Of a stretch of DNA of 64,000 bases, positions 122 to 29,610 are shown one piece after another. Source of the stretch: Diprion similis. Its lineage: Eukaryota; Arthropoda; Insecta; Hymenoptera; Diprionidae. The DNA lies in NCBI RefSeq assembly GCF_021155765.1, contig NC_060116.1:11036001-11100000 (forward strand). Reading direction: 5' to 3'. Both the position numbers and the translations under genes were made by a program. The notes under the pieces were generated by a model. The model was given only the letters and a program-made list of their open reading frames with translations. It was not told the DNA's origin and made no database searches. How positions within the stretch are numbered: the stretch's first letter is position 1; each line of letters opens with the position of its first letter.

Positions 122-1077
122 CTAATTCTCGGGCTTGGACTTCCCATGGAGGGTGGCCTGATCGTCGGATACGTTGTGAAGAACAATTACAACCTGCCTT
201 ACAACGCCACGTCGTACTTGAACCCCTACGTGCGCTATGAGAGATCGATTTACGGGGAGGATTTGCTCGAACCCGATGCTAAGGCTGACCGAAAAGGTAA
301 TAAATATCACAAGCTGTTCAATAATAATTTGGAATCGGCTTGCAGTCGACTGTCAGTTTGCTCTAGAGAATCGTTTTGCAGGAAGTACGACACGTTGGGA
401 AACTTACAGGATGTTGGAGTCGGCTTTCAATATTTTTGGGAGTGGAAAGTCCTGTTTGTTAAGGGCGATTTGCGAGGCAGCCGAAGGAGAGTCGTTCAAC
501 GAAAATCATGGACTTTTCGGTGAACTTCTCCATCTCTTTCTTACGTAAGTCAAGTGTGCCAGATAACACAGTTTTAAAGTTAACGGCATTATATACGGTG
601 TAATGCGTAATAGGCCCGCTAAATATTGGCGGATCAATTTCCACCCCTAAGGCACACAAAGTTGACCCAAAATATCGCTAAACGGTAATTGAGTCAGTGC
701 CGTTTTGCTCTTCCGGTAATAAGCCTTGTCGCATTTGCGAGCTACTCGTTAATAAACTTGGCTTTGAAATAATTCTGCCAATCGCGATTACGATCTGTCC
801 AGCTCACTCGTTTGATATCGTTCTTTGCCTCTCTGCTCATTCCTTGTGAAAGGTCGAGATATCCCGGCATTCAATTTGACGCCTTTTAGTTGCTGCTTAA
901 CGACCGTAACTATCTTATTCCAGACCATCCTTGACTGCAGAAGAATTCTTGGAGAGCACCGATCAAGAGTATCTTGCGGCTGAGTCACTTGGCCGAAGAT
1001 CTTTGGAAAAATGCCGGGCATTTTTTCCGGAATGCAAGACTAGTCCTCTAGAATATTTCACCGAGTCGGAAGATTAA
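122..1077 (+). CDS. DM4/DM12-family protein, gene A (5' end missing)
   Basis: Partial gene; coding exons 122-296, 382-544 and 924-1077, joined by GT-AG introns with matching phases (1, then 2), stop TAA at 1075-1077. The joined frame gives 163 residues. Seen in it: a first exon opening 'LILGLGLP' after a CAG acceptor at 119-121; a glycosylation-type 'LPYNAT' motif (residues 25-30); 'RWETYRMLE'; the C-x5-C signature 'CLLRAIC' (Cys 83 and 89); and a last exon with 'CRAFFPEC'. This is the DM4/DM12 layout, a family of presumed secreted proteins of unestablished function. The signal-peptide exon must lie before base 1. It differs from genes C to I in lacking the phase-2 intron before the C-x5-C exon and in having an 85-bp phase-1 intron further upstream. 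It is most similar to gene B. An AATAAA lies at 1254. The exon-2/exon-3 junction is the least certain part. Confidence 0.82.
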
Positions 1078-8056: not shown

Positions 8057-9972
8057 ATGAAAATCATTGATGTTCTGCTGACTTTGACCGGACTGTCAGT
8101 TGCGACTTTGGCGGAATATGATGGCGGCGAAATAAGAGACAAGAGACAAATCTACTCACCAATTTTGGTCGAGCCTTATGGAGGAACGTTTAAGGTAATG
8201 AAATGAAAAATTGCATCATTAAGCGTGACGACGTGTGAGGATAAAAAAATTATAAGTGCGCACTATATCCGTTACACGGCTTAACGTCAAAGAAATTAAC
8301 GAGCCAAGTACTATTTGCACGTCATCACCAACGACACGTGGGTGTAAAGTCTCCGCGTGATCAATAAATTAGCGCCTCACGGTTGTTGGGTAAATAATTG
8401 ATACGTGAACTCGATACCGCGTGATGGTTCGTCATTGAAAGTTAATGAGCTGATTTGCGCGATACCCTCAGCAAGCCGGTTACAACGTTGAATTAAACTT
8501 GAATAGCGGCGGATGTATAGATTGTGAAATTTTTACGAGTTTTATGGTCGTACGTAAGAGACCTGGTGCATGTGGCTTCGGGAAACATATGAGAGCGAAA
8601 AGTTGTCCGCAGGGGTGAATGACATTGGAAAAAAGTTACGCATTCGAGAGACCAAGGAAAACCGTTTCCTCGCGACTTCTATAATATTTTCTCCATGAAA
8701 ACTATATCCATCGGTAGACCGGAAACGAGGGTAGTCTTGGAGGAAAACCGACACGGAGGTGAATAACTTGTAAAAAAGAGTAAACTTTTACGGCGAAGTA
8801 ATATTGCTGCAGGCCAACAAAAAACACACGATACCTGTCTATTCAAAAAGTTGAAACACATAGAAAAAGAAATTCTGCGCGGTTTTGATGCCACGGGTTT
8901 CGAATGTTACACCCACCAAGCTGGGAAGCATTGAGCCCAGAAAAACCTCGGCTGTAATTTTTCCTCCTTTTTCTATCCGTCCGCTCGTCGCTCTATCGCC
9001 GAGTATTTTTGCCTGTGAAATATGATTCGACAAAATGATTTTACGCGCGTTACTCATCCGAAAAGAGTAAGCCACTCAAGCTGTTTTATTGACTTCCCGT
9101 TCCGATGCGATGCAAGCTTCCGTGGCACCCCAAGGTTTTATCGTCGCTTTCACCCCGCGTCGCATCGCGTGCATTTCCTCACAGTGAGAAAGCGATCGAG
9201 GCGTTAAAGGCACGAAAAAAGCTCCCTCGAGAACGATATGTACCTGAATTTTCCGCATTATTTCCAGCTCATCATTGGTATAGGTATACCGATCGCCCTG
9301 CCCGGTCGTTCTCTGGTCTACGGTCAAAACATGCAGTTCCAATACCCTCTTCCGACCAACGCCACCTTCTTCACGAATTTGTTCTCGACATCGAGTTCAT
9401 CTGGCCGCCGTCGTCGCAGCTCTTCGCGTTACGAGAGACAAATCGCTTACAGTATGTTGGAACAGCAATTCGACAGGTTGTTATCTATACATAGTAATGG
9501 CTAATTTTCGATGACTTTTCGTCCTTAATTCTACAACACAAATATCATGCTAATATCGACTTAATCGTAGCTATTTCTCAACGCGTATTACCGGAGTCCT
9601 TACGTTGCAGGAGCGGTGCCAACGGCAAGGAGTGCATAATGCGAGGCATTTGTGAAGCTGCGGAGACTCCGCTTCGCCAAGAAGGTCTGGTCGGAGAGCT
9701 TCTTCATCTGCTATTGACGTACGTAGACAGGATTATTGATAGTATCCTGACCCTGGCACAAATATTGTTGTGGTACTGGAGAGGGGCTTGCTTTATTATA
9801 ATTACTTCGTTATTTCAGGCCCGATTACGGTGGTAATACTTCCGTCGACGAAGATTACGTTAATGCGAAAAAGGCCGGAATACGAGGCGAGGATTGTGCG
9901 GCATTGTTTCCGGGCTGTCCGCACGGTTATGGAATACTGGACCACGTGTCAACTACAAAATATGTCAACTAG
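8057..9972 (+). CDS. DM4/DM12-family secreted protein, gene D
   Basis: Four coding exons: 8057-8194, 9268-9476, 9611-9718 and 9819-9972; phases 0, 2, 2; 202 residues; stop TAG at 9970-9972. The ATG at 8057 opens the signal peptide ('MKIIDVLLTLTGLSVATLA'). The upstream in-frame ATG at 8009 would bury it. A dibasic 'DKR' (28-30) follows. Exon 2 starts 'LIIGIGIPIAL', has 'YPLPTNAT' with a sequon and carries a strong tetrabasic 'GRRRR' (92-96) in a serine-rich stretch before 'YSMLEQQF'. Signature cysteines are 'CIMRGIC' (124, 130) and 'CAALFPGC' (178, 185). The first intron is about 1.07 kb; the others are 134 and 100 bp. No canonical AATAAA is close after the stop; the nearest seen is near 10928. 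Function unknown. Confidence 0.9.
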
Positions 9973-11251
9973 GTTAAGAACAATGTGATTGGCATAAACA
10001 AATCCCAGCTTTGAATATCGTGCATTGGATTATCTCACTGGTCCAGATTGCACGTAATTGATAGTATCCCAGGACCTCCGTAAGGCACGTCCACCACTTC
10101 TGTCTAGCCATTTCCAGTCATTCTCTCCGAGCGTCCAAGTGCGTCGGTACAACACAGTCGAAAAGTTTTGCCAAATTTCTAGGTCGTCGAGGAGAAAGAG
10201 AGGAAAAGTTTCGCGGTGACCGTAACGACCTATGGTATACTCTTTAACGGGGAAAGAAAACTCCTTGAAAACATGTGCGGCCAACCTTGATGACCTTACG
10301 ATGGTTACGCGAAAACTTGGTTCTAACGCAGCGAGCCAAGTATACCAACCATTACTACGACATCAGGATCGTGTCGTATTGACACTAGACGCGGGATACC
10401 GAGTATCACGCTAAACCAAACGAATTAGCTTTCGCTAACAATAAGTTGAGGAAGAACTGAGCATGCGATCTCACTCAGTCGACTCACGTGAGAGTTTCTT
10501 CTTAGTCGAGGACTTGCAAGTCATTCTTAGTCGAATACTTGCTCAGAAGTTACCGATAAAAGATCTCGAAACGTTTTCAAATACAAAAATGAATCGGTTG
10601 TAACCAGTTACGCGTTACCTTTCAATCTTAACGAAGTTGACGGTTGTCAGAGGGAGTCTTACGTATGCATGCAGCGAAGGTAAGTGCATCCGCAAATATA
10701 ATATGCATCAGGCTATTTTCGTCGGACTTAACACTCGCAGGGTTTAATGGTCAGAGCTTGAGGCGCTAATGGATGGAGATGACGTGACAGATTCCTCCGC
10801 GTTATTTGGTCTTTCTTTCATATTATGCATAGAGCGTTGCAGACTCGGCAAACCACGAGAAGTAAGACGACGCAGTGTCTGCAGAGTGTTGCATTGAGAA
10901 GAAGAGTCGAAACGCGAGACGGGACGGAATAAACTGCAATCATTCCGGGCCGGTGTGTCGGATAGATTTGTGCAAAATTGCTCCGCTTAGTGGGGGCTCC
11001 AATTAAATTAACCATCCAGTGTGTATTGCACGGAATCAACGTTTATTGCTGCCAGGCGGTAATTGGTGCACCGGAGGCCGCGGTATAACCCCAAGACAAA
11101 TCAGGCTCTCCGGAAACTGTCTCAGAAAGTCAAAACTAATTTAACTAATTCTCCTTCTACGTCCACGCGCTAGGGAGTTCACGTACACGTGCACACACTC
11201 GTCATGGTATACTTTGGATAGCGGAGAAATAGGCGAGTCAGTCGGTGAGTA
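9973..11251. other. Intergenic D-E
   Basis: No gene recognised. An 84-codon minus-strand frame (10030-10284) and short plus-strand frames show no motif I can name. A near-direct repeat 'cttagtcga-gacttgc' occurs at about 10501-10546. The right end should contain the promoter of gene E. Confidence 0.5.
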
Positions 11252-13114
11252 ATGAAGCTCGTAGTCTGGACGGTTCTGCTTCTGTCGATCCTCGTGGTTG
11301 TTACGGCAACCGGCAGGTTAAGAGCCAAAAGAGTGGTGGGGATCCGAAGAGGTTCGACATTCTTCGTGAGTATTAACTTATCTAATCGAGCAACTTGAGG
11401 GGGTGTCCTGGTCCATTTCGACAATGGCCTATACATCTCGAAATATCGAAGTCAACGTATCTCAAATTCTGAACAAAAACACTCCAACGGATTTTCCTTA
11501 GATGTAGAAATACAGAAATGGCATGGATTCTATAAATTCGTAAAAGTATTTTTATTCAGAATTTTGTTTCGAATGGCGTTTAGAGGACTTCAATACTTGG
11601 AGATGTATACTTCGACGTCGAAACCGATTAAAGCACCCCCTTAATTCGAGGAACGGTTAAGGCGTGCCAAAAAATATCGATCGATTGATGGAAAACGGGA
11701 CAAGCTTTGCAAGTTTTTTTTTTTTTTCTTTCGCCGACGTCTTAGCTCAGGATGAACTTTAAGGATATAGTACTGAAGTCTACGACAATCTTCGCACACG
11801 TGGCTGGGTTCAAAGTGACATGGCCCGTCCCGGCTGGCGATGGAATTCCGAAGAGAAGATCGATCAGAGCGCTGCACGATGATTTGGAATTTCTGTTCAA
11901 CAGGTAATTCGATCAGTTGTTGAAAATATCGGGCATGAAGCGAGACCGAGTTTTGGCTTTTTCACATGTCAGTGGGGCATCCTCGTCACCGCGAAACAAG
12001 GGGATCGTTTGGCCGGATTTTTTCCTCTTCATACATTCGTTCTCTCTTTTATTACCCCGGCGGACGAATGATATTTGAATATCCAGGAACGAGAGGATTT
12101 CGCCGAATCATGGAAAAAGTTTTCACCAGTCGCGTTGTTTCTCTTTTCAATATTTTTAGTGCCAAGGGGGCTCGGCTGGCTGGTGAGTCGGACTAAAGAG
12201 AGAATTGTTTGTTTGTTTTCTCCATTGTTCTTCGCTTCGCCGTTAGTATATAATATCCAAGCAACGCGCTGTTTCTGCACAGGAGAAAAGTCGGACCAGC
12301 CATGGAATAACAAAACTCTACGATTGAAAAGAAAAGCTTCAGTGCTGGGCTGCGCTGTTCGTGATCGAGAATTCTCGTCGTTAATAATATAGTGAAAACT
12401 TTGCCGGAACCAATCCGTCGACGTAAAACATACTTGAAACTCCTTTTCACGTTTACTCTTCCATTGCGATGACTACGAATATCACGTAGGATACTGGCAA
12501 TACTAATTAAATGATTACGGGTATTTAGGTTTGAAGGATATTTGCTCCTAATCGAAATAACAAGTAAATATATTCAAATAGTTTATATGACGGTAGATTA
12601 ATGTAATCGTTTCCGAACGTGAAGTTCTCATTGACAGATTGTTACACGAGTGTTGATTGAAATTTGTTAAAAATAACTCGCGGTGTGAAAGCGTGGTTAA
12701 CTGGCATGTATTTGAAATTGAAAGAAAGGCAAAGTTACAAGGAAGGGTAAAAAAAAGACAGGACAAGGGTCGTAAATTTGTAGAATGCAAAAGTGATGGA
12801 GAAAAATGCAGCTATTTTTTCAATTCTTTTCAGACATGGTTTTGACGGGAAATCCTGCCTCTTAAATAACATTTGCCAAGCAACGGATTACGTTAGTCAG
12901 AAAAGCGGAGTCATGGCGAAGATTGTCAGACTCTTTCTGAGGTTAGTAAGCATTACGACTAATCAAGCCCCACTTGCGAAGCATGATACTACGAAATTAT
13001 TCCAGATACTCGAGTGACGGCAATTATACTTCAACACTAGATGCGCTGAGCTGCGATGACTACAGAAGTATTTGTCCTTTGGATTTCACTGGGATTGATG
13101 CGTACTTGGAATAA
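11252..13114 (+). CDS. Divergent DM4/DM12-family secreted protein, gene E
   Basis: Four coding exons: 11252-11365, 11746-11903, 12834-12941 and 13006-13114; phases 0, 2, 2; 162 residues, the shortest of the array; stop TAA at 13112-13114. The signal peptide is 'MKLVVWTVLLLSILVVVTAT'. A dibasic 'AKR' (25-27) is followed by 'VVGIRRGSTFF', where the usual FPEGS motif is lost. The exon-2 acceptor is set at 11744-11745, because the alternative AG five bases downstream hits a stop at once. Exon 2 has 'VTWPVP' and 'PKRRS' (73-77). Signature cysteines 'CLLNNIC' (99, 105) are present. The last pair is 'CDDYRSIC' (143, 150): spacing kept, but the family's Y-P is replaced. Identity rests on gene structure plus cysteines. 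AATAAA at 13269. Confidence 0.83.
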
Positions 13115-14049
13115 ACAGAAAGATTTTTTATTACATGTATTGTTTTCACTAATTCTGTAAGAAAACTTTTAGTTTTTTGACAATACCATTTTCGTGCAAT
13201 AACTATTATCTAATGTGTTTCAAACTCTGAGTGGCAATTATAAATGTAAATATTCACATGCATGTGGCAATAAATCAATTCTAAACTACAAGGAAATGCG
13301 TTGACTACGGCAAAATGAGTATTCATTGACGTCACGAGATTTTTTAAAATATTACTATTCACCACTTGCAGTATTATTCCATGCTCTCGGAATTAGCACG
13401 ATGAAAAAAAATCAGTGATACGTTTAACCGGTTGTCAGAGGGGAGAAGGGGTGAGGAGTTGAGTGTATTCGACGTTGGCGGTAAGGATGTTACTTGGACC
13501 GCCATTAAACGGACATTAACGAGTCTTGCGTGAAGATGGGATAAAATGAGGAGTCGAATCATTAATTCGTTTCATCTTCAATAAACGTCGTGTTGAACAA
13601 GGACCATCCGTCGGTTCGCACGTCGGTTGAATCCCTCAGTTTTGATAAATTGCCGCCTAGTTTTGCACGAGATAAAACAACTATTAGTGCAGTGGTGGCG
13701 TCGGGCGGCTGACCGCGTTGTTGAATCAACGAATTACCAACTAAACGTAAAAATGTAGGCGAGTGGAATAACCGTTGGATCCTATCGTTTCACCCAGTAG
13801 CATGAGGCCTAGGCACCAAACGTCGACGAATATCAATACTATTCACACGCGTCGAATGCCGTGTTCGCGTATTACTGTAGTCGTGTAATCATCATTCGAG
13901 AGACGTAAAAAGCCCGAAGGTAGTACACGACGTTTAACAAGAATATACGGTAACTGATTAAGAAGAAATTAATATCGAGGAAGTAAAAATAATAGTCGCG
14001 AATACCCGACACATTGATAATTGCGCAAACACACGCTCGTTCATTCAAG
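13115..14049. other. Intergenic E-F
   Basis: Contains the 3' end of gene E and the upstream region of gene F. No other gene, repeat or clear core promoter seen. Confidence 0.5.
13269..13274 (+). other. Polyadenylation signal AATAAA, gene E
   Basis: Hexamer 155 bp after the stop of gene E. Another AATAAA overlaps the stop codon itself (13110-13115) but is too early to be the likely signal. Confidence 0.45.
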
Positions 14050-15860
14050 ATGGGCCGACAGCTACTAAACAACTTACTCTTCGCCATGACTTGCCTAAAC
14101 TTCGTGTTCGCCAACTCGACGGAATTCACTAAAAACCTCGAAGTTCCGGATACTGGAAGAATTCTTTCCAGACGAAAGAGGTACTTGATATTTCCACGGG
14201 GCAGCAACATTCAGGTAAAAAATAATCCCCCCATGAACACGTCGAGTCCGGTTGTGCCCCCTTAACTCAGACCCCCTTCACAGCTGGTCTACTGTCTAAC
14301 TATCGAGGCCTATGGAAGGCCCGACGACTTGGTCTTGGGCCTGACAGCAGCCATGGCCTGGGAGCTGCCCTCCTCGGTCGACGAGAAGGTGGTGGACTTG
14401 TTGCACCGAAGGAGTCGCAGTGTCGTGTACCCGAAGATAGAAGCATTCCTGCAATCGTGAGTATATCGTGAACATAGTCGAATCGATCAGAGCATTCTTA
14501 CTGCTGTACCTTGTAAGATGAACCTGATCGAGTAACGAAATTTGACGTCTCAGGTCGTTGGTTCGACGGCGGTGCAGGAATGTTACTCTGAAAAATGTAG
14601 TCCGCTTAAAAGCTCCTGGGACTAGCAGAAGTTATTATTCATACAGCTGCGCGGTGCCTTGCTCAGAGCCCCGATGACGAATGCAGGTCACATTTTGATG
14701 CTAGTCTCGGGACGTTGCGGAAGCCCGAAAGTTAATAATAGTTAAGGCCAGGAAATCGTTTATAAGTGAATTAAACCCGCTTTAGTGGGTCAGCTAGCCG
14801 GTGGAAATCTTTTTTAATTCGTTTTTTTCCTGTGCAGTACTTGCAGAAGTACTCGTGTAATTGTAAGTATAGATGCGTTCCGCAAGTACAGTAGATACGT
14901 TTCTTCACTCGCGAGGTGATTAATTAACCTTTCCATCGTCTCGGGAACCCGGAACTCACTTTGCTTCTCGTTAATTCTTGACTCTGATAAAAGCTCTGTT
15001 CACAGGACCGGTCTAGACGGCCGTGCCTGCGTTCTAAAGGCACTCTGCGAGGCCGGAAAGAGGAAGAAATCAGAAGTCGGCCAGGGGACCTTCGTACAAG
15101 AAGTACTGCACGCCGCCTTCAGGTGAGTACTACACCACCTCCAGAGTTTTCAAGTCTTTAAATCGAAGCACGTATCTGGATAAAAAACCTCAAAATCATC
15201 AATCTTACAAGTATCTTCACCGCGGTGAAAAATGGGGACGAATGTATAAATCCGCCGAATGACTTGAAACTCCCTCAAGATACGGATCCTCCTTTTTCTC
15301 CTACTTCTTCTTCTACTTCATCTCATACCCTTTCCCCTGCTTTCTTCCAACGGGCCAACCCTTCGCCCTTTTTCAAACTTCCCTTATCCTAAGACGTGGC
15401 ACATAACCCCACGGCTATACGGACTTTGTTTACTCGCCCTGCAGCGGCTAGAAATAAGGTTATACCTTTATGCTACAACAGGATAGTATTATTATTATTC
15501 ATTGCTATTTGTTGAGCTGACTTGTCGTTTTTATCGCCGTTCCATTTTGCGAAAAACACGATCTGCAAATATTTATCAGAACGCGAGGTTAGCCCGAAAT
15601 CTTTTCGCTTACAATTAGACGCTTCAGTAATCCTTTGACCTGGTTTCGAAACTGATTTAAATCGGCTAGATAAGACCTTGAGAAGTTTTGAAGAATCAGT
15701 CATATGTTCCACCCCAATTCCTGTTAACAGCTTGCCAAAAGATGGATCGAAATTCGACTCGGTGGAACACCAGATTTATGACTACGCTCACTCGACTCAA
15801 GAAGATTGCGAGATGCTGTATCCAACGTGCGAACATTCCATCTACAACGTTGAATTTTGA
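14050..15860 (+). CDS. DM4/DM12-family secreted protein, gene F
   Basis: Four coding exons: 14050-14214, 14284-14456, 15006-15122 and 15731-15860; phases 0, 2, 2; 194 residues; stop TGA ending at 15860. The ATG at 14050 is preferred to the in-frame 14014 because it opens the signal peptide ('LLNNLLFAMTCLNFVFA'). A consensus furin-type 'RRKR' (41-44) is followed by 'YLIFPRGSNIQ'. Exon 2 starts 'LVYCLTIEAY' with an extra cysteine (59), has 'AMAWELP' and ends with 'HRRSR' (96-100) before 'VVYPKIE'. Signature cysteines are 'CVLKALC' (121, 127) and 'CEMLYPTC' (178, 185). It is clearly the closest relative of gene G (same exon-2 cysteine, AW-x-LP, HRRSR and YPKIE motifs). The first intron is only 69 bp. 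AATAAA at 16260. Confidence 0.93.
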
Positions 15861-17076
15861 ACCCCAAATTCAATCGGCGACGCCCTTCTGACAGACGAAT
15901 TATGCCGTTCACGTGATGGATCTACACTGCAATGAAGAACTTGCCGCAAACTTTATCGAAATAATCTCGATGCAGATAATCAGACTGATTTTAATTCGTT
16001 AATATTGCCGGCAACTTGTTCATAATTAGTTACGTACTACGCAATGCAATTCTGTATAATATGCGCAGTCTTCGTTTAAGATGAGAAATTCTACGAGTCA
16101 GACAAATCTATAGATACATTTATGTATGTATATATATATGTATACATACCGACCCTATTCGAATCGAGATATCCAGAGGCTTTTAGAAATATTAAATGAA
16201 TTTTATTTCAGCTCGTAAATCGTGAAGTCATGTATAACTAATGTATAAGAAGTAGAAGTAATAAAATAATTTTATTAGACAGTTTCCTGACTTTCATTAT
16301 CCATTATTCAATAGTCATCCTACCGTAATTGGACCGTATCTTCCTTCCTGTTTCGTATTTTGATGTAGCAGTGAAGGCAGTCGACTGATAAAATAGTAAT
16401 CACCTTTCGCGATGACTACCCAGTTTATTGGTCAAATTACCGTTGCGCTCTTAGGCAGCTTTCGGTTGTCAAGCGAGGCCAAAGCTTGCGGAAAAACTTT
16501 GGCACTGCATGTGGTCTTGATTAAAATTTATCGAACCAACAGGCAGAAATGAAAAAGAAGCTTTAAAGCGGAGAATTAATTCAAATACATCTCGTTGTTT
16601 TCGGAGTAGGTTTCCCAAGTGTTTATACATTCAGCGTGAGGAAACGTTTGGTTTCATTTCAATTGTTCGATGTGGGTTGGGTGTGAGTTTTTGAGTCAAC
16701 AAATCTCGCCGATTTATCAAATTACTTCATTGTTGATGGCTCCGCGATCGAATTCAGGGTTTCACCGAGTGAAACCCCCACGTCCTGCAGCGCTGTTTTC
16801 CGATTCACCTCAAACACGAGCCTAATTTTCACGAGAATTGATTCGCCAGTTTGGTTTATTGTGAGAGTTGATTAACAGGGTAACGCCAACATGGCCGAGG
16901 CTGTGGTACCGTTGTAACTGTCTCGCTTACCGCGTCCAGCCGTCCGTCTATCCTCTAGTAACCTCGCTCTCTCTGGGAAACGAAGCTGTCTAAACAAGTG
17001 CGGTGTGCTGATTCAAGGGTGTCGCTAGATCGTCGAGTACAAATCGTAAAATTGAAGAAAGAAAGAAGAAAAAAAA
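15861..17076. other. Intergenic F-G
   Basis: No additional gene seen. The left part is the AT-rich trailer of gene F with a short TA/TG-rich patch near 16120-16150. The right part is the upstream region of gene G. Confidence 0.5.
16260..16265 (+). other. Polyadenylation signal AATAAA, gene F
   Basis: Hexamer about 400 bp after the stop of gene F, in 'gtaataaaataa'. Confidence 0.4.
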
Positions 17077-18296
17077 ATGACGCGCCCGAAATGTCCCGGC
17101 TCTTCACTGATACTGCTTATCGCATTCGCCGAGCTTTGCGCTGCGGCTTACACCAGCGTTTCGTTCGTGAACAGTACCGATAAACCGCGTCCAAAACGCG
17201 AGGTGGACAAACTCGGTGATCCATATCGATTCCTCATTTTTCCAGAAGGCAGCAACGTTCAGGTACGACGATTAAAGAACTCGCCGCGAATTTCCGCGGC
17301 TCGATTTTCTGTAATCTGGCATTTTTATTTCACAGCTAATCTACTGCATGACTATCGGCACCTACGCAAAACCTCAAGGAATATTCACCATGGGTGTGAC
17401 TGCTGGTCTGGCTTGGCAATTGCCTCACAGAAACTCTGGAGTCCACCGAAAACCAGCCGAGGTCTATCACCGCAGGAGTCGACGAGAACTGTATCCGAAA
17501 ATAGAAATGCTGCTGAAGGCGTGAGTGCGATGAAATTATTATTCAATTCGCGATTTCGAATGATAAACAGAAGTCGAAAGCTCCGCTATACTTTTCCGTC
17601 GACCGCAAGTTTCACCCCCATCAGTTCACTCTCACATCCCTTCTCACGGCAGACACGCGACTCGAGCACAAATGCTCGGTACCTTGGAAGTCAAGGCACA
17701 CTTACAAGACGAACGAGTACCCACCCCCAGTAGGCACTTGAAGTTTCTCTCAAGTTCTCTTCCGCGGAGAATATTGGCCGAGAGAAAAGAGCGCGGTGGT
17801 GGCGCCGTAGTTTTGTATTTATAATATCGGTTGACCCCCATTGCAGCGTAAGACAGGTGGCTCCAAACTTCTCGGCAAGTGTTCTTGAAGGGTAGGGAGC
17901 GTCGCTTTTTGTAGTCCCAGCGAGCTTTCGAAAGCTCTAAAAATCTCTCCCTTTACAGTCAAGGAAAGGACGGCAGAGCCTGCGTACTTAAGGCGCTCTG
18001 CAAAGCTGGCCAACGAAACCGAAACGCGACTGACGTGGGAAAGGGGGGCTTCATGAGGGAGATGATGCACTCGATATTCACGTAAGTCACTCGCCATTTT
18101 CCTCACTGACTTTCCACCCCTCCTCACTCTGTTCTTTGACCGAGCTCGCCGAGATCGCGACCCAAAGTCCACTTATTCCTCTAGATTACCGGGAGGATCG
18201 TTCCACGAGGATCCCATGACTCAGTACGAGAGAGCCCACTTACAATCAGACGAGGACTGCGACCAGCTGTATCCCACTTGTCTCGAGAACATATGA
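17077..18296 (+). CDS. DM4/DM12-family secreted protein, gene G
   Basis: Four coding exons: 17077-17262, 17336-17520, 17959-18081 and 18185-18296; phases 0, 2, 2; 201 residues; stop TGA at 18294-18296. The signal peptide is about residues 1-24 ('LILLIAFAELCAAA'). A dibasic 'PKR' (39-41) precedes a spacer and 'YRFLIFPEGSNVQ'. Exon 2 opens 'LIYCMTIGTY' with an extra cysteine (66), has 'GLAWQLP' and a strong 'HRRSRR' (107-112) before 'ELYPKIE'. Signature cysteines are 'CVLKALC' (132, 138) and 'CDQLYPTC' (190, 197); the protein ends just four residues later. A continuous open frame runs on through the first intron, but the conserved second exon is in a different frame, so splicing is required. 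Closest paralogue: gene F. AATAAA at 18553. Confidence 0.93.
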
Positions 18297-19890
18297 GAAG
18301 AGATTTTCTACCTGCCCGGCTCCTCCTCACATGCCGCAACGCGCCGACGGATCGCCCCTCGAATTCACCGACAAATTGAACGTGTTTTCCTACAAGAAAA
18401 AACTTTCCCTGAACCTCGAGGATCGAGTACTTCGCGATAAATGTAGCAATAACAACAACGGATTGCCACTGTGCATCGTTAACGCTGTTTCAGAAACAAG
18501 AAAAAAAAATGTAAAGATTTTTGGTTACCGGTGATCCGAAGTGAGCCTTGACAATAAAGATCTAATATTTGTCAAATTGATTGAATTCAACTGGACCACT
18601 TAACTCGTGCGAAACCATGCTAGCCGTCGCGTGTGACGTCAAGTGTGACTAGATCCTGTCTCCTGGTAGTGATGTCCTTATTGGAGCAAATCCTGCCACG
18701 TGCGAGGCGGGCTGGGCTGTATTAATCATAATTAACCATAATTAGCTACCCTTGCACCCGAGCGGTGCGTCTCCCGAGGGTTGAGGACTAGTGTGACGGG
18801 TACCTTAGAGCTGGGACACAGTACGTCGACGTGGTGAGAAATCTTCTTAATTTGCAACGGAGCTCCGTTGTAAATCGGCGTGTTGTTAGTCCGCCACGCT
18901 GAGAAAATTAACGTCCTCGTGGTGGCTGGTTTCGGGTGCTATACATTATTTTCATAGCGCGAAACGACGCGCTCTGTTTAATTTTTCACTGCCAGGGTAG
19001 GGTTTTTATCCGGTGCCTACGCCGGCGCTACAAGCCACTCGATCTGAAACAAGTGCTGGTTCGGGTAATGCCGGGGGCTTGCCGACTCGCTGAGGGAAGG
19101 GAAGGGTTTAATGGGGTGCAATAAGGGAAGGAAAGAGAGGAAATTAGTGGCTGTTACACTGCGAATTAATTTTAATGAATTGCGCGACTTATGCACGGGT
19201 CGTCCGAAAGGAGTTAAAAAAATTTATACGCACATTTTTGGTATTATCAAAACTCAAACGATCCGATTGCGCTAGCTGGAGCTGCAGGTGAAAGTTAAGG
19301 AAATTAGTACAATCAAGACCGGGCTAATCGCGGTAGGTTTACGTCGTTCTTTTGTCTCACCGTGAAAGCTCCGGGTAGTGCTGCAAGCTGGGTGAGTTCC
19401 TGAGGGACGTAATCTTGAAAATCAAATTTAAACGTAATTTAGAAGAAGGCTTCAAGAACGAGGGAGAAATCGTGAGGAATTCCGCTCGGCAATTTCGGAT
19501 TTAGACTGAAAATAAGATCCGGTGTAAAGCGCTTTCTTCCATCGCACGGGGCACGGTCCATAATTTTTTTGTTTCCTTACTCACCCTCTTGAGTCGAGGG
19601 GGTTGGATCGCCGGATAATCGATTCCCTCGAAAGTAACGAGCATCGTCCGAATACGGTGGAGCCTAAAACCCTACGAGACGAGGTAAAAAACGGTGGGAG
19701 AGTCCGAACGACACGTTAACTGGGTCTACAAACATCACGATCGGTAAATAGTCCGGGTATAAGGAGGAAGGAGATTGGCGGGGTATTTTCGAGGGAAGCA
19801 AAGTTGTCCGTTTGCGTTCACGGCGAGCGTGTGAGGAGTCGTTGTGTTGAGTTTGAAATCTCTCTCTCACTCTCTCGCTCTCCTCTCGCG
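18297..19890. other. Intergenic G-H
   Basis: Trailer of gene G, then about 1.2 kb with no recognisable gene, and a CT-rich 5' leader ('ctctctctcactctctcgctctc') directly before the ATG of gene H. Confidence 0.5.
18553..18558 (+). other. Polyadenylation signal AATAAA, gene G
   Basis: Hexamer in 'acaataaaga', 257 bp after the stop of gene G. Confidence 0.5.
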
Positions 19891-21905
19891 ATGAAGGCTT
19901 CCCTCTTTTTCGTATTGATTCACGCATTGATCGCGGGAGTGTTGTGTCGCCGAGAAGGGAGCGGAAACACGCAGGCGACAAATATGATGAGCTCTGATCA
20001 CGACCTTCGGGAGGACGAGAAAGGGGATAAGGTTCTTCTGTCCAGGAAAAGAAGATTCCTTAGTTTTCCGGAGGGTAGTGCTTTCGTGGTGAGTTAAGAC
20101 TCGTTCCGAGCTTCGTGATTTCCGACAGTTTTTTTTTTTTGCGATCGGGGTTGGGTTTGATCGCCACCGAATCGATCGAGTCATTCAGGCTTCCTGGAGC
20201 GACGGACAATGATGAATAATCAGAAAAGGAAATCAGAACTTTCCCGGAACATCGTCACCTGAGTGGCGTGATTCGACGGATCTTAATTGCCTGAATTTTA
20301 ACCAGAGGAAATTGTTTATACGAGAAATTCTGTTAACGACGGTTCAATTATTCAGAGACTGCTTGTCGTCTTTTTGGAATATCAACGACAATTTTAATTC
20401 CCAGTTGCATGTTTTTATTTTCAATTAAACCTGATCTTTTTCCAGTCAACCTTGTCCATCGTTAAAGCGCTCCAGTTCACGCAGAGCCCACCGACTAACG
20501 TGATCATCGAGTTCGACGTAATTTGGCCGATTCCGAGCAACAACAGACGCCTTTTGGGACCTGAGAACCGGATGTCCGTCAAAAAGAGAGTCTACAGGCC
20601 TTCTTCACATTGGCGAGTGCATCGTCGTCAGAAGAGGGACTTGTATTCCACCTACGAAGCTGCTCTCGAGAGGTGAGCATGAATGCAATCGGAGTTTAGA
20701 GACCAACGTGCCTGCTTGTGGAATTAAATCAAGTCGAGAGTTAACCTTGTATCCTTCCTAAATTCTGTCCACTATAAACAAACAATTTGTTTATTTGAAC
20801 AGCTGGTCACTCAGGCAAGAGTCTGACTTTGTCAGAGAGTTTCCGCAGTACAGTGGGAAACGAATGACCCTAGTTTTTTTCAGTAACATTAACGATAAGT
20901 CTCGCTATTTTATTGTTGTACTCGACGTTCTCATAATACAGCAATCATAATGTTTAATGGACCGTTTAAAATTCATTTATGTACCCGAATGCGTGTATCA
21001 TAAAACCCGCAGTGGCCCGAATAACTATTTAAATGACGTTCAATGCCGATGCTATCGGCAACCGTTCATCTAGATAATTTGATCGCGATCAATATCGCGT
21101 GTCTAATGGTATAAGAACAGGTGCACCATTCTAAGACCATTTGCCACAAGTAAAGTTGAAAAGACGTCTTTTTTTATTCCTTTATATTTACGTAAAAAGG
21201 TTATACGTTTAGAAAATACAAAATTTCAAACAATATTCCTGAAATAGATGAATTTCAAACGTTTTTAAAGCGTTTTTAAAGCGTTTTCAAATAAAGAAAA
21301 AATTTGTGGATACGACCTTATACCATTAGACACGTGATATAATATAGATTGAAATTTTTCATTTCACTTGAGGCAGTTTTGATTTCGATTTAAAACGTGG
21401 ACGCGGAAAAACTGTTGGAAAGAATGCGTGGGTGGGAGAACAATGTTTCGATATTGGCGACAAGTACTATTGGCTACAACGTGAGTGACGTTTAATTATT
21501 CGGTACGTTAGTGAAAACGTTGAAAAATTCCTATCCTGTTGCAGCCAGGGTTTGCCAGGCAAGGAGTGTATACTGAGGACGATTTGCGAGGCACAGAGCG
21601 TTCTTTCACCTCCGGGAGTTTCATTTTTGGAGGATATGCTCAGAATACTTTTGAGGTGAGTCGAAAGTGCTTTTTTCTGTCAATTTTATTTTTTTGTTTT
21701 GTTTTTTTTTTGAGCCTTAACTGGAATGGCGATGGAATAATCTTCACCTTGTGCGTTTTGTTACAGCAATGTTGCGAGGTCGGAAAACGAGATCGACGAA
21801 TACGATTTGGCGTATAAATCGAGGAAGGATTGCGACCTGAGATACGAATGTCCGTTCTCTATACTGGAACTCCTTTTATCGTTTGATCAAAATTTGTACA
21901 CTTAG
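19891..21905 (+). CDS. DM4/DM12-family secreted protein, gene H
   Basis: Four coding exons: 19891-20088, 20446-20672, 21545-21655 and 21767-21905; phases 0, 2, 2; 224 residues; stop TAG at 21903-21905. The ATG at 19891 opens the signal peptide ('MKASLFFVLIHALIAGVLC'); the in-frame 19804 ATG would precede it with a charged stretch. A long acidic pro-segment ends at 'RKRR' (52-55), followed by 'FLSFPEGSAFV'. Exon 2 has 'VIWPIP' and a dense 'HRRQKR' (125-130) before 'DLYSTYEAALE'. Signature cysteines are 'CILRTIC' (150, 156). The last pair is 'CDLRYEC' (201, 207), one residue shorter than in every other copy and without the Y-P. The third exon's upstream intron (20673-21544) holds a possible MITE. 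AATAAA at 21957. Confidence 0.9.
21098..21334. repeat. Inverted-repeat element (MITE candidate) in gene H intron 2
   Basis: An 18-bp perfect inverted repeat, 'cgtgtctaatggtataag' at 21098-21115 and its reverse complement at 21317-21334, encloses about 200 bp of AT-rich DNA. The match extends outward ('atatc') with one mismatch. It has no coding capacity. The size and terminal repeats fit a non-autonomous DNA transposon; target-site duplication not resolved. Confidence 0.5.
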
Positions 21906-21956
21906 CCAAATTTTTTATTTAAATTTCATGTTTTCCACATAACTTATGCAACAATG

Positions 21957-21962
21957 AATAAA
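21957..21962 (+). other. Polyadenylation signal AATAAA, gene H
   Basis: Hexamer 52 bp after the stop of gene H. Confidence 0.55.
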
Positions 21963-23441
21963 GAAAATTAATTGAAAACTTTGTACAATCCTTCCATTGT
22001 TATCATCTCACAACTCGTCACGGCCAGATGTTGGTAGGAAAAATAAACGTAATGGTCCATGTCTCGACTATGGATATGAGAAATTCCGCTACCTTAGTAA
22101 CGACACTTTTGCTACTAAATCAGGATATACGGTTCTCCATAAATTCAAGGTAACGAGACATTTTACGTAGATCAAGTTTGTTTCGTTATACGATGTGTAA
22201 AATCTGTTTGCAAAATCATACTTTCCGATTTAACAGCAGGTAAGAAACCTACTGTCGTTAAATCCGTAACGATCTAAACTTGACGACTTTAGCTACGGTA
22301 AAAAATTGACGACGAAAATTTTTCTCATCGTATCGAATGACGAGTAACTAAATCATATCACACGTCCTCACATCCCGCATAGAATTCGTCAATGCACGAT
22401 CTTGTCTTACGTGCTCAAAAATAACCGACGTTGATCTTGACCGTTAAGCTTACGCCAGACCGTAACAGTATCGGTAATTAGCGTCTCGCAAGTTCTCGAA
22501 AAAATGTCCCGTTAACTTCTTACGAAAACAGAATCACTCGGTTACCAACGCCACGCTAATACGGGGGTCAGTTTCTGGCTGCACGTTAACTCCAACGTAC
22601 GGGTCACAGATGAGCAAAGTGTTGAACTAGCAGCGTCTGGCAGTGTCCGCAGGCTCGGTGAGTAATCCTTTGACACGAGGTTTAGTCGTTGAAACTGATC
22701 GTATAAGTTTGCTTCATCTGCACGGGATTTCCTCCCTTGCGTCTTGGAAACATCCGTACTTTTTTTTCACTTGTAATTCGCATCTCGAGAGATCAAAGTG
22801 TTCTCTACTCGGGAAAGATTGCCGCGAGCAAAAAGAATGTATTTCTTCGAATTCCCGCTTAGTTGAGAAGCGATAGACGCCTCAGCGGAACGGTAGAAAT
22901 TCCACGTTCGAAAACTCAGACTCGATCATGGCAATAAAATCTCCCGTTCGTCAGACGAGACGCGCGTTGACTTTGATTCAAGGGAAGAGGCCGATCGGTG
23001 GATTCAAAATGGCAGGGAGGAATGCGGGCCAATTTTGAACAGACTGAGGAGTCGTGGCTGGGGTTGGTGGTTTGGCTCTGCTCGAAGTGGTAAATTCGCG
23101 ATTGATAGGCATCGAGTATCTGCAATTTGTTCCTTGCAAGTTCTACCTTGTTCGACGTGCGAATCCCACACTCAACGCACGAGCTCAAATTTCGCGGGCA
23201 CAGAATGCTTTTATTACCCTTGTACAAGAGATTTGGGCCTCCCTATATTTTTCTCCAGGGGTGAAACTGTGTTCTCGGTACGTTACATCCTACATCCTAC
23301 ATCCTACATCGCTTCAGCGCTAGAGACTAATGCCGGGAGTTAGAAAGATTTCCAAGTATCGATTCCGCCCGCGTTTCTCCCCTGCAGAGTTCGCGAATCA
23401 CCGAGCAAACCCCCCTCCCCGCGCCCCCCTCTTTGTCTTTG

Positions 23442-23449
23442 TATATTTA
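23442..23449 (+). promoter_or_regulatory. Possible TATA box of gene I
   Basis: 'tatattta' lies about 110 bp upstream of the gene I start codon, a distance that would allow an 80-base leader. Position and composition only; no initiator was confirmed. Confidence 0.25.
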
Positions 23450-23556
23450 GAAGAACTCCGAAGATAACTCGGTCCATAAAACACGATTCGACCGAAATTA
23501 TACGACCTCATCCGTGTCCGCCGGCAACTATATCCGATCCCTTTTTACAGGCAAAC

Positions 23557-26500
23557 ATGACCGGAAATGGAATGATCTTTCTTCTCCTTGGCCTTCTCGG
23601 CGTCATTTTTATCTCATCGGCGGACGGCGGTTCCGGAGAAAAGCTTCTCTCGAGGAGAAAGCGCTACGTAGTTTTTCCCGAGGGATCAAGTTTTTCCGTG
23701 AGTAGAAACTGTTCGGCGATAAGTGTCAGCGCCAATTGAATTCGCGTTAATTGTTTTCGGTTCAAACTCAGATCGCTCTCTGCATGACCGTCCACACTAT
23801 CACCTCAGACAATATTTTCACCGAAGGCCTCAATTGGGGTGTCTCATACGATTTGCCGAACGAAAGCAAGCCCGCCCTCGAGCCATTTCTCGACTTCAGA
23901 AAGGACAAGTTAGTCCCCGGAAAGTTCGCCTACAAGGATCCGAAGAACGGATATGCGAACGACCTGAAGTACGCGAGCTGGAACGATGACAGGAAGTACT
24001 ACGTATCAAGTCCTAAGAGGTACTTCAAGTCGGACAAGTATTACGTGCACAGAAGACACAGGAGGGATCTCTACAACAAGTTGGAAGTGATAATGAACGC
24101 GTGAGTGCAAAAAACTTTACCTAATTTCCTTATTTTCAATATTGTATAACATAGAAATCTAATCTTAAGATTAACGTGAAAAATTAAGTATTTTCCTCTA
24201 TTTACACAGCTTTAACTAACTTTTTAATTTATACTCTAGCCGTGTTGCTATAATTTTTTTTAAATTCGTTTCCACAACGTTTCGGCCACCGTAAGCGATG
24301 GTAAATGTCATGGTAAAAGTTTGACAGGTGAAATATGCGGCATCCGGCGTCTCAGAAGCTTTCGGAATAGCTCGCCAGTTTGAAATTTATCACTTTGTTG
24401 CTACGACCGGAGACTTTAATTCGTTGAATTAATTCGCGCATTCATAGCAGGCTCGACGTGACACCCATTCCTGGGTTGATCTACAAATCAACTTTTAGAC
24501 ACGACAGGAACGTTATATTTTATCCTGGATCATCGTCGTCGTTGTCATTGCTTTAATTGATCGAGAATCTTCGTGCAGATGCGCGGAATCGCACCTTTTT
24601 ATCGATTGTTTGATAGATTGGCTGGATTGATTGAGTTTTGATAGATACCTCTAATGAAAAAGTCTAAGAACCAGTTCCAAGGCGGAGACGGTGAATCAAT
24701 AATGGCGAAAAGATCTCTATATACCTGCATCTGAGTAATTGGAAGGTGCTTTATATCCCGGGAAGGTGTGATGACAGTGAACGATAGTTTCCAGGATATG
24801 CATATTAATCAGTAACCCGCGGGGTAGCTTTCCACTCATGACGCGAAATTACCGAGGTCTGGTCCTTTGCCGTTCGATTGAATTTCAGGTACAGCTCTGT
24901 CAGAGATGGTTGAATTTGAATTTGAACCGTCGCGCCTCGGCTCCGTGTTTTTAATTGCCTCGTTGCTTCAAACGGTGCAGCCATAAGCTGCTAAGCTCTC
25001 TGCCGAAATCACCATAATCACCTTGATAAAGTTACCGCTTACACATAGCCACGGCATGCTTAATAACTTTTTAATCATCATCCATCCTCTGGGATACGCT
25101 GATCGTATTTTCGCCCTGAAATATTATCCAATCTTCGTGTAAAGTTACAAGCGCTAATATAAAGGAACAAAATCTTATTTTCCCCCGAGTTAAGCTAGGG
25201 GTGATTATTTTACATTTCACACTTTCAATACACTTACCGCAGCTTTTCGTCCTACGAATTCAGTCTATTATGAATTAGGTACACGTCTAACGGAGGAATA
25301 AATAAACTTTTGAATTATACACTACACCAGTGTATTGAATTTTTAAATCCGTTAGGAATAATCGAATTTTAATTCCATTATTCGGTTTGTCTAGTCGGTG
25401 TAGATATTCCGCTTCAGGTAGAGATATATTCGCGGCCAACCCGCGTTTGGTATATATTATCGAGAAAGTAATTTGATCATTCTGTAAATATTCATGGGTT
25501 CCTGGGTAAGCTGACAGAGGTATACGGTAGGGGAAGGCGCGGGGTTGACGGGTGGAAGTAAATTTTCACTAAAAAATAAAGGAAGCATTGCACGAGGTCG
25601 ATTCGATCAATCCGGAGCTTCGAGGACGCGCGGCTAGCCGACTGGTGAGAGCATGTCCCTCGAAAAAGAGGTCTTATAAATACCTTCCTACTGCGCAGGT
25701 AATTAATCGCTCGAAAAGGAAATCAAAGATTCGGTGTAGCCGGTGAGAGCCGAGCTTTCAAAGTAATTTTCAATCCGAGGATCGTTCGTTTCGTGGAAAG
25801 AGTCTGCAGGCTGAAAAGCGGGGCTGCAAGACGTCCCTTGAACGTCGACCCTGGAAACGACCTTATTTCGGGGAACAAGGTCCGGGCGAAAATAATCAAG
25901 CCCCGACCCCCGCCTGAGGGAATAAATCTGGCCATAGCCCAGAATAGAGGAAACTATTTCCCCTAGACGCTGCAAGCTCTGGTGGAAGTGGGAATAAATG
26001 GCCTGCCAGCCACGTTCAGAAACAGTCTCTTGCCGCGCCCTGCCCTGGAAAACCCCCGACCCCTAAAAGCCACCCCCGCGGCGTCCCGACGCCCTCAACC
26101 GCACCGACCACCCGGACAATCCCAAGGCGCTCTTGCACCACCGCTGAATGCAACGGTGTCTGAATTCTAAACGACGACGCTTACGTGGGTATCCGAGCCG
26201 GCGGAACCTCCGGGCGGGGGTGAATTTCAGTCGTAGCTCGAATGCGGATTCTTAAGGGGAAATTAGACTGTACTTTGAGTTGATTGGGAGCTGCATTCGG
26301 TGTTTGGGCCAATCTCGACGCGATCATTGTAGGTATGCAATAGTTCTGCTTGCTCGTATTATTCGAGTAAGCCGAGGGGATGCCGAACGGTACGAGGGTG
26401 AATCCTCAAGAGGATCACCGTCTCTTCGGTGTAAGTATCGATGCGTATACCGCGGGGGAGTTTGAGCTGCTGAGCTCGAGCTCTTTGAATTTCGGAGATA

Positions 26501-29500
26501 GTGAAGGATCGGCTCGATATATACGCGTGGTAAACATTCGCGCGTTGCCGTTGAGCCATTCGCAAAATACGATACTCGGTGAGTAGGAGTACGTATACGT
26601 TTCGTGAATTTTTTCCCCGAAGGACTTTCATCCTCACGCTCTGGCATTCCGGAGGAGGTTTTATTCGAAACCAGAAATTCATTGAACCGTTTATTCGTCG
26701 AGGTGCAAGCTCGGAAAAAGGGAAATTTTTCCAAATTTTTATCTCAAGAATTTGTACGTTTTTTGAAGAAAAATAATTTTCTTGCTATTTATTTGACAAA
26801 GTATTTGACGAGTTGGCAGTATCTTACTAGATTCCAAAAACCAGTTTCAAAGTACGTGGTCAAGTGAATAGACATTCGGTTTTTAAAGTAAAAGCTTGGT
26901 TTTCTCGGTTAGACGTATTCGACGACTTTAACTTACCTTAAGATTACTGCAAGTTGATCAGTCTGACCCAATCAGTCCTCCAGTCTGCACAAACAATCGT
27001 GAGCCTGAAGTCTTTGCGATCGTTAGAATCCGATTTAACACACTTTGAAATCGTATTTGCGCGGGTAACAAATTCCTCGTCGCGGTGATTGCTTTCCACC
27101 AATCGTAGGCAGCACATAGGTGTGCAGTGATGTGGAATTACGCCGCAAGGAAGGCTTTGTTCGGTTAAATTTGGAAATATCATTAAGTTCCGAGTGTACT
27201 CGAAACTCCTGCAAAGACGGTTTTTCCTTCCACACTTTAAGGCGACACTCGACGTGAAATGAACCGGATTATCACGGTCTGATCGCGAAGTAAACAAGCT
27301 TGATAAACTCCTGATTTCGCTCAACGACGTAACAACAGCGTAACTTTGGCTCTGCGGAGATCTTGGATTTCGTTTAAAATTTATTTTTCAACAGACTGGA
27401 ATCAGCGAGACGATCGCACGTCGATCAATACACTTCCGGGAAATATCTTTGATTGTTTGATCCGCGTGTCGCGATATCGGGACCGTTCACAGCCGGCGGT
27501 GATCCCTTTCTGAAGTTATCACATCTCCTGCGACACCCGAGAGAAGTCGAGTGATTAGAATTAATGGTCCACACGCTCTCGGAAATTGCCGATTCTAAAC
27601 TCGAATTTCAACCGCAAACGTCGGCTCGTTTAAAGTTTATAGGAAATCATGCGGACTGTGATTATACGTCCGCATGTAGTCGCGTCGTTGAAGGAACTGC
27701 TCGAATGAGTACTTCCGAGATTCTGCCGTTTACAATTCCCGAAGCTCGACTTGTCGCGTCTTTCTATCCCGACTTTGTCTACTCGCTTGGCAAATCCAGG
27801 TGTTAGAGGTCATCAACTCTGTGGTGAACCAAATTTTCTAGGGCCTTAACTGAAGCCGTATCATCGATCAGAGTTCTAGAATGGATGGAAAAAAATTTGG
27901 AAGAATGTGCTTAATATTATCGTTTAAAATTGATTTCAACCCCGCTTTTCAGGACTAAGTAACGTCGAGCTCGTCTGATTTCAGGATGGGATTCGATGGA
28001 AGAACTTGCGTGCTAAGGGCACTGTGCGAGGCGTCGCAGCGATTGATGCCCAAAGGGAACACCTTGATCGAGGAAATGATGAGAATCACTTTTTCGTAAG
28101 TTGGATATGAGATTTTGGTTGATGTATGAGAATTATTAGCAATGCAAATTATTCATGTACCCGAATTGGGAACGTTTATTGATTGTTAGAGCGATGTGGA
28201 TGACTCTCGAAGCTCAATATCTCTGCATGCGAAGTGTATTGATGCGTATTTGAATCGGAATCCAAAGAATGAGAAAGAAAAGAAAATTCCAAGTTCAGGA
28301 AAAAATTGCTACATCACATAATAAGCTTTTATTACGCCATCTAAGGCGGAAGAAGATAATCTTAATTATCGGTGCTCTTGTAGAATTTAATTCCATTTCG
28401 GTTAAAGCGTGTATAGAAAAAGAAAAATCAGGAAAACGTTAGTCCGGAAACCACGACGTTGCGTTATGATCTTACAGCTCGGTTTAATCGTAGCCTACGT
28501 CACGAAACGTGACGTCATATCAAAAATATGCTGCACGTTTCAACGTATACCGAGTGAGTTGAAAAAACAAGCGTTAATACTCTACGCATATTAAAAAATA
28601 TGACAACGATTGTATTTTTCAATCGATGGTACAAACAAAATTAATTCAATACTTTTCTATCGCTTCTGGGTCTGATATTTTCCTATAAAGGCGTTTTTCA
28701 CTCACGATTTCACGTTTCTGAAAAAGTTTCGAATTCAGTATGAAGTTGATAATTTGCATTTACCCGTATACACATACACATAGAGAGTAGAAGCACTGCT
28801 CGTTTGTGTAAGTTAATTAACTCGAATCCAAGTTAATTTTGAATTGAAGGGCGCATAAGGATGCATTCTAAAAACTAAATTAAAAACGATCCCGCCTGGC
28901 TCTCCAAATCACCTCGCACCTGGAGACGCTCCGGATCCCGGTTGGCTCGGCTTGATACGCCGTCGAGTGTGCGCCGTTTTCGATTGCTAGGATCTATCCA
29001 ACTGGCAGACTGATGGACGGATAAAACTGAGATATTGCTGGATATTAGAAGTTCGGAGCACCGAGGATCACGCCGTGAAGGCAATTGCCGATATTTCACC
29101 GCGATTCATCCCCGATTTGTCCGCGTGACGTGCAGTGTCGAACAATTCATCAGAGAGTCGTCCTATCTCCTAGTTTTTTTTTCTTCATTCTCCTCGTTCT
29201 TTTCCTCGCCCAGACTTTCGTGTCAGACTCATCACGAGCATCGAGAACTAAACGGTGCCGATCCGAATCGATTAATCGCCGATTCGTTGGTCGAGAATTC
29301 ACTCGACTGACGAAAAATTGTTTTCCCGTTGATCGAACTTCCTTTTTTTTCCAGACTGCCCCTGAAGAGGGTCTTCTCGTTTGAACCCCCCGAGCATCAC
29401 ACCTACGACGCGGCGCATCGCGCCGGCCACCAGGGCCGTGACTGTACGAGAATGTTCCCTGCCTGCAGCTTCTCTTTGATTGATATGGCCCTCGGAAATT

Positions 29501-29610
29501 ACAACAGTCCCGAGGCCAGCTACGACCAGATTTCCAGCGACACCGGAAGTCTCGGAGACCTCGCGAATTCCAGGACGGAACCGCCGGGCGGAAGGTATAT
29601 CATGAAGTGA
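23557..29610 (+). CDS. DM4/DM12-family secreted protein with insert and C-terminal extension, gene I
   Basis: Four coding exons: 23557-23697, 23772-24100, 27985-28095 and 29355-29610; phases 0, 2, 2; 278 residues, the longest of the array; stop TGA ending at 29610. The signal peptide is 'MIFLLLGLLGVIFISSA' within residues 6-22. 'RRKR' (33-36) precedes 'YVVFPEGSSFS'. Exon 2 has an extra cysteine ('IALCMTVH', Cys 51), 'YDLPNES' with a sequon, then an insert of about 45 residues rich in K and Y, ending at 'HRRHRR' (140-145) before 'DLYNKLE'. Signature cysteines are 'CVLRALC' (165, 171) and 'CTRMFPAC' (224, 231). A 47-residue tail rich in S, N, G and P follows. Introns 2 and 3 are large (3.9 and 1.26 kb). 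The phases and motifs make one gene more likely than two, but transcript support would settle the long intron. AATAAA at 29762. Confidence 0.86.
24101..27984 (+). other. Large intron 2 of gene I
   Basis: A 3.9-kb intron between phase-2 exons. I see no DM4/DM12 exon inside. It holds a GC- and proline-codon-rich patch at 25980-26160 with a 62-codon frame lacking an ATG and any known motif, and short A/T-rich stretches elsewhere. Confidence 0.6.

What the first reader, a model, noticed from the sequence alone, without database searches (positions are those of the whole stretch)
8057..29610. Two conserved polybasic sites suggest these are processed precursor proteins
Genes D to I have a dibasic/furin-type site after the signal peptide (DKR, AKR, RRKR, PKR, RKRR, RRKR) just before or near the mature '[YF]xxFPEGS' segment. 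They have a second basic cluster late in exon 2 (GRRRR, PKRRS, HRRSR, HRRSRR, HRRQKR, HRRHRR), always just before a short helical-looking stretch leading to the C-x5-C exon. Cutting at both would release a middle segment of about 50 to 105 residues and a C-terminal four-cysteine domain. A two-site layout held across six diverged paralogues looks selected, and I do not know of it being described for this family.
Basis: partly seen in the sequence, partly recalled or inferred. Interest (0 to 1): 0.7.

Follow-up and report, generated by a model that had tools for sequence, protein, structure and literature searches.

The report
Furin-type sites, insect DM4/DM12 genes
A row of probably secreted insect proteins of unknown function carries one enzyme-cutting signal at the same place in most copies and a second one in about half of them, so they are probably trimmed, and some perhaps split in two; this has not been tested at the bench.

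Summary
I read both regions in 14 paralogues: A-I, four just upstream, one elsewhere.

Site 1: 13 of 14 have R-x-x-R before the hairpin segment (C has none). Of 11 copies with a recognisable xx[FY]P segment, R-x-x-R abuts it exactly in 9; G's lies 10 residues earlier. D, E and C2a have the motif but no [FY]P, so their register is untested.

Site 2: R-x-[KR]-R in 6 of 14, R-x-x-R in 9 of 14; nothing near in A, B and K5; only a dibasic pair in K1 and C2a.

Neither is expected by chance (0 of 3000 shuffles). All 16 R-x-[KR]-R in the stretches counted lie at the two sites, none in the four-cysteine domains. Site 2 in E-I falls within one residue of the Pfam match start.

Most likely a furin-like convertase removes a propeptide in most members and, in a subset, also cuts between hairpin segment and helical domain. 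Cleavage is inferred, not shown.

The parts
8057..9972 (+). gene D (DM4_12): exons 8057-8194, 9268-9476, 9611-9718, 9819-9972
   Evidence: (Pfam E 1e-20)
8135..8146 (+). gene D site 1, RDKR, directly before QIYSP (no [FY]P segment)
9403..9417 (+). gene D site 2, GRRRR, 15 residues before the helix Glu
11252..13114 (+). gene E (divergent DM4_12): exons 11252-11365, 11779-11903 (11746 also possible), 12834-12941, 13006-13114 (other acceptors also possible)
   Evidence: (E 8.7e-9)
11321..11332 (+). gene E site 1, RAKR (no [FY]P segment)
11848..11868 (+). gene E site 2, PKRRSIR (minimal R-x-x-R)
14050..15860 (+). gene F (DM4_12): exons 14050-14214, 14284-14456, 15006-15122, 15731-15860
   Evidence: (E 1.2e-16)
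14170..14181 (+). gene F site 1, RRKR, directly before YLIFP
14404..14418 (+). gene F site 2, HRRSR (minimal R-x-x-R)
17077..18296 (+). gene G (DM4_12): exons 17077-17262, 17336-17520, 17959-18081, 18185-18296
   Evidence: (E 3.6e-18)
17188..17199 (+). gene G site 1, RPKR, 10 residues before FLIFPEGS
17468..17485 (+). gene G site 2, HRRSRR
19891..21905 (+). gene H (DM4_12): exons 19891-20088, 20446-20672, 21545-21655, 21779-21905 (21767 also possible)
   Evidence: (E 7.7e-13)
20044..20055 (+). gene H site 1, RKRR, directly before FLSFPEGS
20620..20637 (+). gene H site 2, HRRQKR
23557..29610 (+). gene I (DM4_12): exons 23557-23697, 23772-24100, 27985-28095, 29355-29610
   Evidence: (E 8.2e-24)
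23653..23664 (+). gene I site 1, RRKR, directly before YVVFPEGS
24048..24065 (+). gene I site 2, HRRHRR
122..1077 (+). gene A (DM4_12), exons 2-4 in the window (122-296, 382-544, 924-1077), exon 1 upstream of the window with REKR before YLVYP; no site 2 near the helix
2377..3770 (+). gene B (DM4_12): exons 2377-2541, 2786-3081, 3617-3770; site 1 RERR at 2497-2508; no site 2
   Evidence: (E 2e-24)
5473..7134 (+). gene C (DM4_12): exons 5473-5565, 5849-6042, 6536-6652, 6960-7134; no site 1, minimal RSTR at site 2
   Evidence: (E 7.3e-21)

Best explanation
These are secreted DM4/DM12-family proproteins. After the signal peptide is removed, a furin-like proprotein convertase cuts after R-x-x-R at site 1. 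This drops a short variable propeptide, so that in most members the mature chain begins at the conserved xx[FY]P segment. In a subset (clearly D, G, H, I, K2, K4; possibly C, E, F) the linker between the beta-hairpin segment and the helical four-cysteine domain has acquired or kept a second R-x-[KR]-R or R-x-x-R site. In D-I a cut there would give a hairpin chain of 41-109 residues and a separate four-cysteine domain of 83-133. Shown: gene models, motif positions, non-random placement, coincidence with the Pfam border. Inferred: secretion, the enzyme, both cuts, and what the pieces do.
For: Site 1: with the segment defined by rule, R-x-x-R abuts it in 9 of 11 (null mean 0.18) and R-x-[KR]-R in 6 of 11 (null mean 0.04); 0 of 3000 shuffles reach either. 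Site 2: R-x-x-R in 9 of 14 (null mean 1.3) and R-x-[KR]-R in 6 of 14 (0.15) within 20 residues of the helix anchor; 0 of 3000. All 16 R-x-[KR]-R motifs in the stretches counted lie at the two sites: 10 in exon 1, 6 in exon 2, 0 in 1428 residues of 15 C-terminal domains. R-x-x-R is absent from those domains against 4.28 expected, 23 of 3000 shuffles as low. Site 2 P1 is within one residue of the Pfam match start in E, F, G, H, I. The gene I exon 2 model has a hairpin, then a mostly low-confidence stretch, then a helix starting within the cluster. RXRR furin sites separating peptides are documented for fly Drosocin/Buletin and Baramicin A (passages read).
Against: A, B and K5 have no R-x-x-R near site 2 and C has no site 1, so neither cut is needed family-wide. 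In C and D site 2 lies 6-7 residues before the Pfam match start, not on it. The gene I model is poor (pLDDT 54). In gene B, which has no site 2, strands and helices follow without a long linker (pLDDT 73), so the two parts may be one fold. Plain dibasic pairs are not depleted in the C-terminal domains (6 against 7.17). No signal-peptide or convertase predictor, orthologues or proteomics were at hand.
Confidence: 0.57

Rival explanations
1. Only site 1 is cut. The site 2 cluster is an uncut basic linker at the border of the helical domain, serving as a helix cap or as a charged contact surface.
For: No R-x-x-R near site 2 in A, B, K5, and only a dibasic pair in K1 and C2a. The cluster runs into the first helix in the gene I model (helix 97-109; cluster at exon residues 93-98, derived).
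Against: In six genes the cluster has the R-x-[KR]-R form, and no such motif was found outside the two sites in the stretches counted. In D, K2 and K4 it ends 12-15 residues from the helix Glu, not at the cap.
Confidence: 0.3
2. The similarity of the clusters is shared ancestry of tandem duplicates, with no processing at either site.
For: The genes are a tandem array with the same intron phases in C-I; F and G are 44% identical in exon 2 upstream of the cluster. The residues of the helix just after the cluster are also shared (2-5 of 7).
Against: F, G, H and I share 20-44% in exon 2 upstream of the cluster but 3-5 of 6 cluster residues (the cluster is short and was picked because it is alike). 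Site 1 keeps its register in 9 of 11 paralogues while the residues before it differ.
Confidence: 0.13

Closest known systems
DM4/DM12 family, Pfam PF07841 (DM4_12)
   Same: All nine genes match: eight complete models at 8.7e-9 to 2e-24 and gene A by its exon in the genome search. Four cysteines in the C-terminal part (for C-I).
   Different: The Pfam model covers only the C-terminal part (86 positions); hairpin segment and site 1 lie before it and site 2 at or before its start. No paper on processing of the family turned up in my searches, which cover open-licence papers only.
Drosocin/Buletin and Baramicin A precursors of Drosophila (PMC9233930, PMC8423362; passages read)
   Same: An insect secreted precursor split at RXRR furin sites into separate products.
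   Different: Those are antimicrobial peptide genes with proven products; here no product is shown, and the C-terminal part is a four-cysteine domain. No sequence comparison was made.
Insulin-type two-site precursors (recalled, no call)
   Same: Two basic sites bracketing a middle segment.
   Different: The middle segment has no cysteine in D, E and H and one in F, G and I, so two chains held by several disulphides are not indicated.

Membership tests
DM4_12 (PF07841) | match to the curated profile over its cut-off of 22 bits | tested here: met
   Genes B-I 36.4-86.5 bits; gene A exon 51.1 bits at C12:11036393-11036548
DM4_12 (PF07841) | four cysteines in the C-terminal domain | tested here: met
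   4 Cys after site 2 in each of C-I, 4 Cys after residue 25 in B; the four-cysteine description is in PMC12825958 (passage read)
furin-processed insect precursors | R-x-[KR]-R or R-x-x-R at a domain or segment border | tested here: met
   site 1: 9 of 11 abutting the segment; site 2: 9 of 14 near the helix. The family definition is recalled except for the RXRR examples
furin-processed insect precursors | cleavage shown in vivo or in vitro | not testable with these tools
   no proteomic data held
furin-processed insect precursors | N-terminal signal peptide | tested here: inconclusive
   Hydrophobic starts are visible in the models, but no predictor was run; start codons of K1, K2 and K4 were not settled
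insulin/relaxin superfamily (definition recalled) | paired cysteines in both chains flanking a connecting peptide | tested here: not met
   middle segment of D-I has 0 or 1 Cys

The most novel reading that the evidence does not exclude
DM4/DM12 genes form a family of two-product precursors: convertase cutting releases a free beta-hairpin peptide and a four-cysteine helical domain, and paralogues have switched the second cut on and off. One array would thus yield both one-chain and two-chain secreted factors. In F, G and I the single cysteine of the hairpin could pair two such peptides.
Probability: 0.25. Interest if true: 0.6.

Novelty: new member of a known kind. Interest (0 to 1): 0.35.

Why it matters
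DM4/DM12 is a multi-copy family (24 exon matches in this genome, 19 marked over the cut-off), and its domain is called of unknown function in the one paper I opened that names it (PMC12825958). Knowing where the mature chain probably starts, and that some members may be cut in two, tells an experimenter which fragment to express and which form to look for in proteomes.

Tried and rejected

Rows left out of the 14: K3 (exons 1 and 2 not found) and the matches at C2:8286890, C2:11013012, C7 and C10 (exons 1 and 2 not modelled; those at C2:11013012 and C10 are under the family cut-off). In what was read upstream of the helix at C2:8286890 and C7 there is no polybasic cluster near it; C7 has a lone KR farther off. 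Limits of the rows kept: exon 1 of K1, K2 and K4 was cut at a place of my choice; exon 2 of C2a was started at a Met inside a longer open frame; exon 2 of K5 was joined by eye without settling the splice sites; the C-terminal domains were cut to start behind the cluster and lack the last residues of C, H, I and K3. A and K5 do have one R-x-x-R (RYER) in exon 2, 30 and 65 residues from the helix Glu.

The site 1 test (R-x-x-R 12 of 14, strict 9 of 14) placed the segment start by eye, for D, E and C2a right behind the basic site; it is replaced. The tree has no starred branch and long branches for E, C2a, D, C. On it the strict site needs 4 changes (bootstrap 3-5, shuffled mean 4.8, 172 of 500 as low), the starred branches force only 1; the four genes without a site (A, B, K5, C2a) need 2 (20 of 500 as low), so they may be partly related. 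Alignment A3 misaligned hairpin rows and was not used; A1, used for the model, also misaligns the tails of exon 2 rows.

Full report
What is there. Its first 30 kb hold nine tandem + strand genes, A-I. Eight are complete in the window and give proteins of 151-278 residues; splicing by GT-AG has phases 0/2/2 in the seven four-exon models (C-I), gene B has one intron fewer, and exon 1 of gene A lies upstream. All nine match Pfam DM4_12. I read both regions in 14 genes: A-I, upstream K1, K2, K4, K5, and C2a on another contig.

Site 1. Thirteen of 14 exon 1 sequences have R-x-x-R, ten of them R-x-[KR]-R; gene C has none. To test the register I defined the segment by rule, as starting three residues before the first [FY]P; 11 of 14 genes have one. 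R-x-x-R ends exactly at that border in 9 of 11 (A REKR, B RERR, F RRKR, H RKRR, I RRKR, K1 RQIR, K2 RHVR, K4 RPIR, K5 RRKR) against a null mean of 0.18; R-x-[KR]-R in 6 of 11 against 0.04; 0 of 3000 shuffles reach either. In G the site is RPKR 10 residues earlier. D (RDKR), E (RAKR) and C2a (RQKR) have the motif but no [FY]P, so their register cannot be tested this way.

Site 2. R-x-[KR]-R is present in D, G, H, I, K2, K4 (6 of 14). R-x-x-R within 20 residues of the helix anchor is present in C, E and F as well (9 of 14). A, B and K5 have neither there and no dibasic pair in exon 2 (A and K5 have an RYER 30 and 65 residues away); K1 has RR and C2a a KR 23 residues from the helix Glu. Null means are 0.15 (strict) and 1.3 (loose), 0 of 3000 reaching.

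Specificity. In the 14 exon-1 and 14 exon-2 sequences and 15 C-terminal domains as I cut them, the strict motif occurs 16 times, all at the two sites. The 1428 residues of C-terminal domain hold no R-x-x-R, against 4.28 in shuffles (23 of 3000 as low), while dibasic pairs are as frequent as expected (6 against 7.17, and 12 against 12.27 for any two basic residues). These domains were cut to start behind the cluster, which favours the result slightly.

Domain border. Site 2 P1 and the Pfam match start are 68/69 in E, 100/100 in F, 112/111 in G, 130/130 in H and 145/144 in I; the match begins at profile position 3 in E and 2 in H. In D they are 96/103 and in C 79/85. For gene I exon 2 AlphaFold2 gives a hairpin (2-25), a stretch mostly under pLDDT 50 (33-93) and a helix (97-109); the cluster is residues 93-98 by my count. 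Mean pLDDT is only 54, so this is weak. Gene B, with no site 2, gives three strands followed directly by three helices at pLDDT 73.

Evolution. A tree of 15 C-terminal domains has no well-supported branch. On it the strict site needs 4 changes (shuffled mean 4.8), but a single origin is not ruled out. Within F-I the exon 2 sequence upstream of the cluster is 20-44% identical, the six cluster residues 3-5 of 6, the next seven helix residues 2-5 of 7. Orthologues were not available: the genome tool says that G000 has no relatives here, and the other collections are prokaryotic, viral, plasmid or metagenomic by their descriptions and were not searched.

Reading. Site 1 processing is likely. Site 2 processing is plausible in about half of the genes read and has no recognisable site in at least three. 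Furin-cut precursors with several products are known in insects (PMC9233930, PMC8423362; passages read), so the mechanism is ordinary. What would be new is its application to DM4/DM12 proteins; eight paper searches found nothing on their processing (open-licence papers only).

Noticed in passing
window 2786-3081 and 122-544: Gene B has no intron between the hairpin exon and the C-x5-C exon, and gene A has an intron at another place there (after DRK), so the A/B type differs from C-I in gene structure as well as in lacking site 2.
   Followed up: partly
window 11252-13114: Gene E is a divergent copy: its Pfam match covers only profile positions 3-56 of 86, its last exon lacks the usual stretch before the second cysteine pair, its tree branch is very long, and its exon 2 and exon 4 acceptors are uncertain.
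   Followed up: partly
L035:6788-7255 (- strand): Upstream copy K3 has exons 3 and 4 close to K4, but no exon 1 or 2 was found, so it may be a partial gene.
   Followed up: partly
window 14284-14457, 17336-17521, 23772-24101: F, G and I share a single cysteine at the same place in the hairpin segment (a fifth cysteine beyond residue 25), which could link two chains.
   Followed up: no
window 47764-48942, - strand: Open frame of a ligand-gated ion channel subunit (Pfam Neur_chan_memb E 5.2e-56, Neur_chan_LBD 3.1e-10).
   Followed up: no
L040:4879-5244: Long simple repeat reading GERERGRE near a distant DM4_12 exon on contig C7.
   Followed up: no
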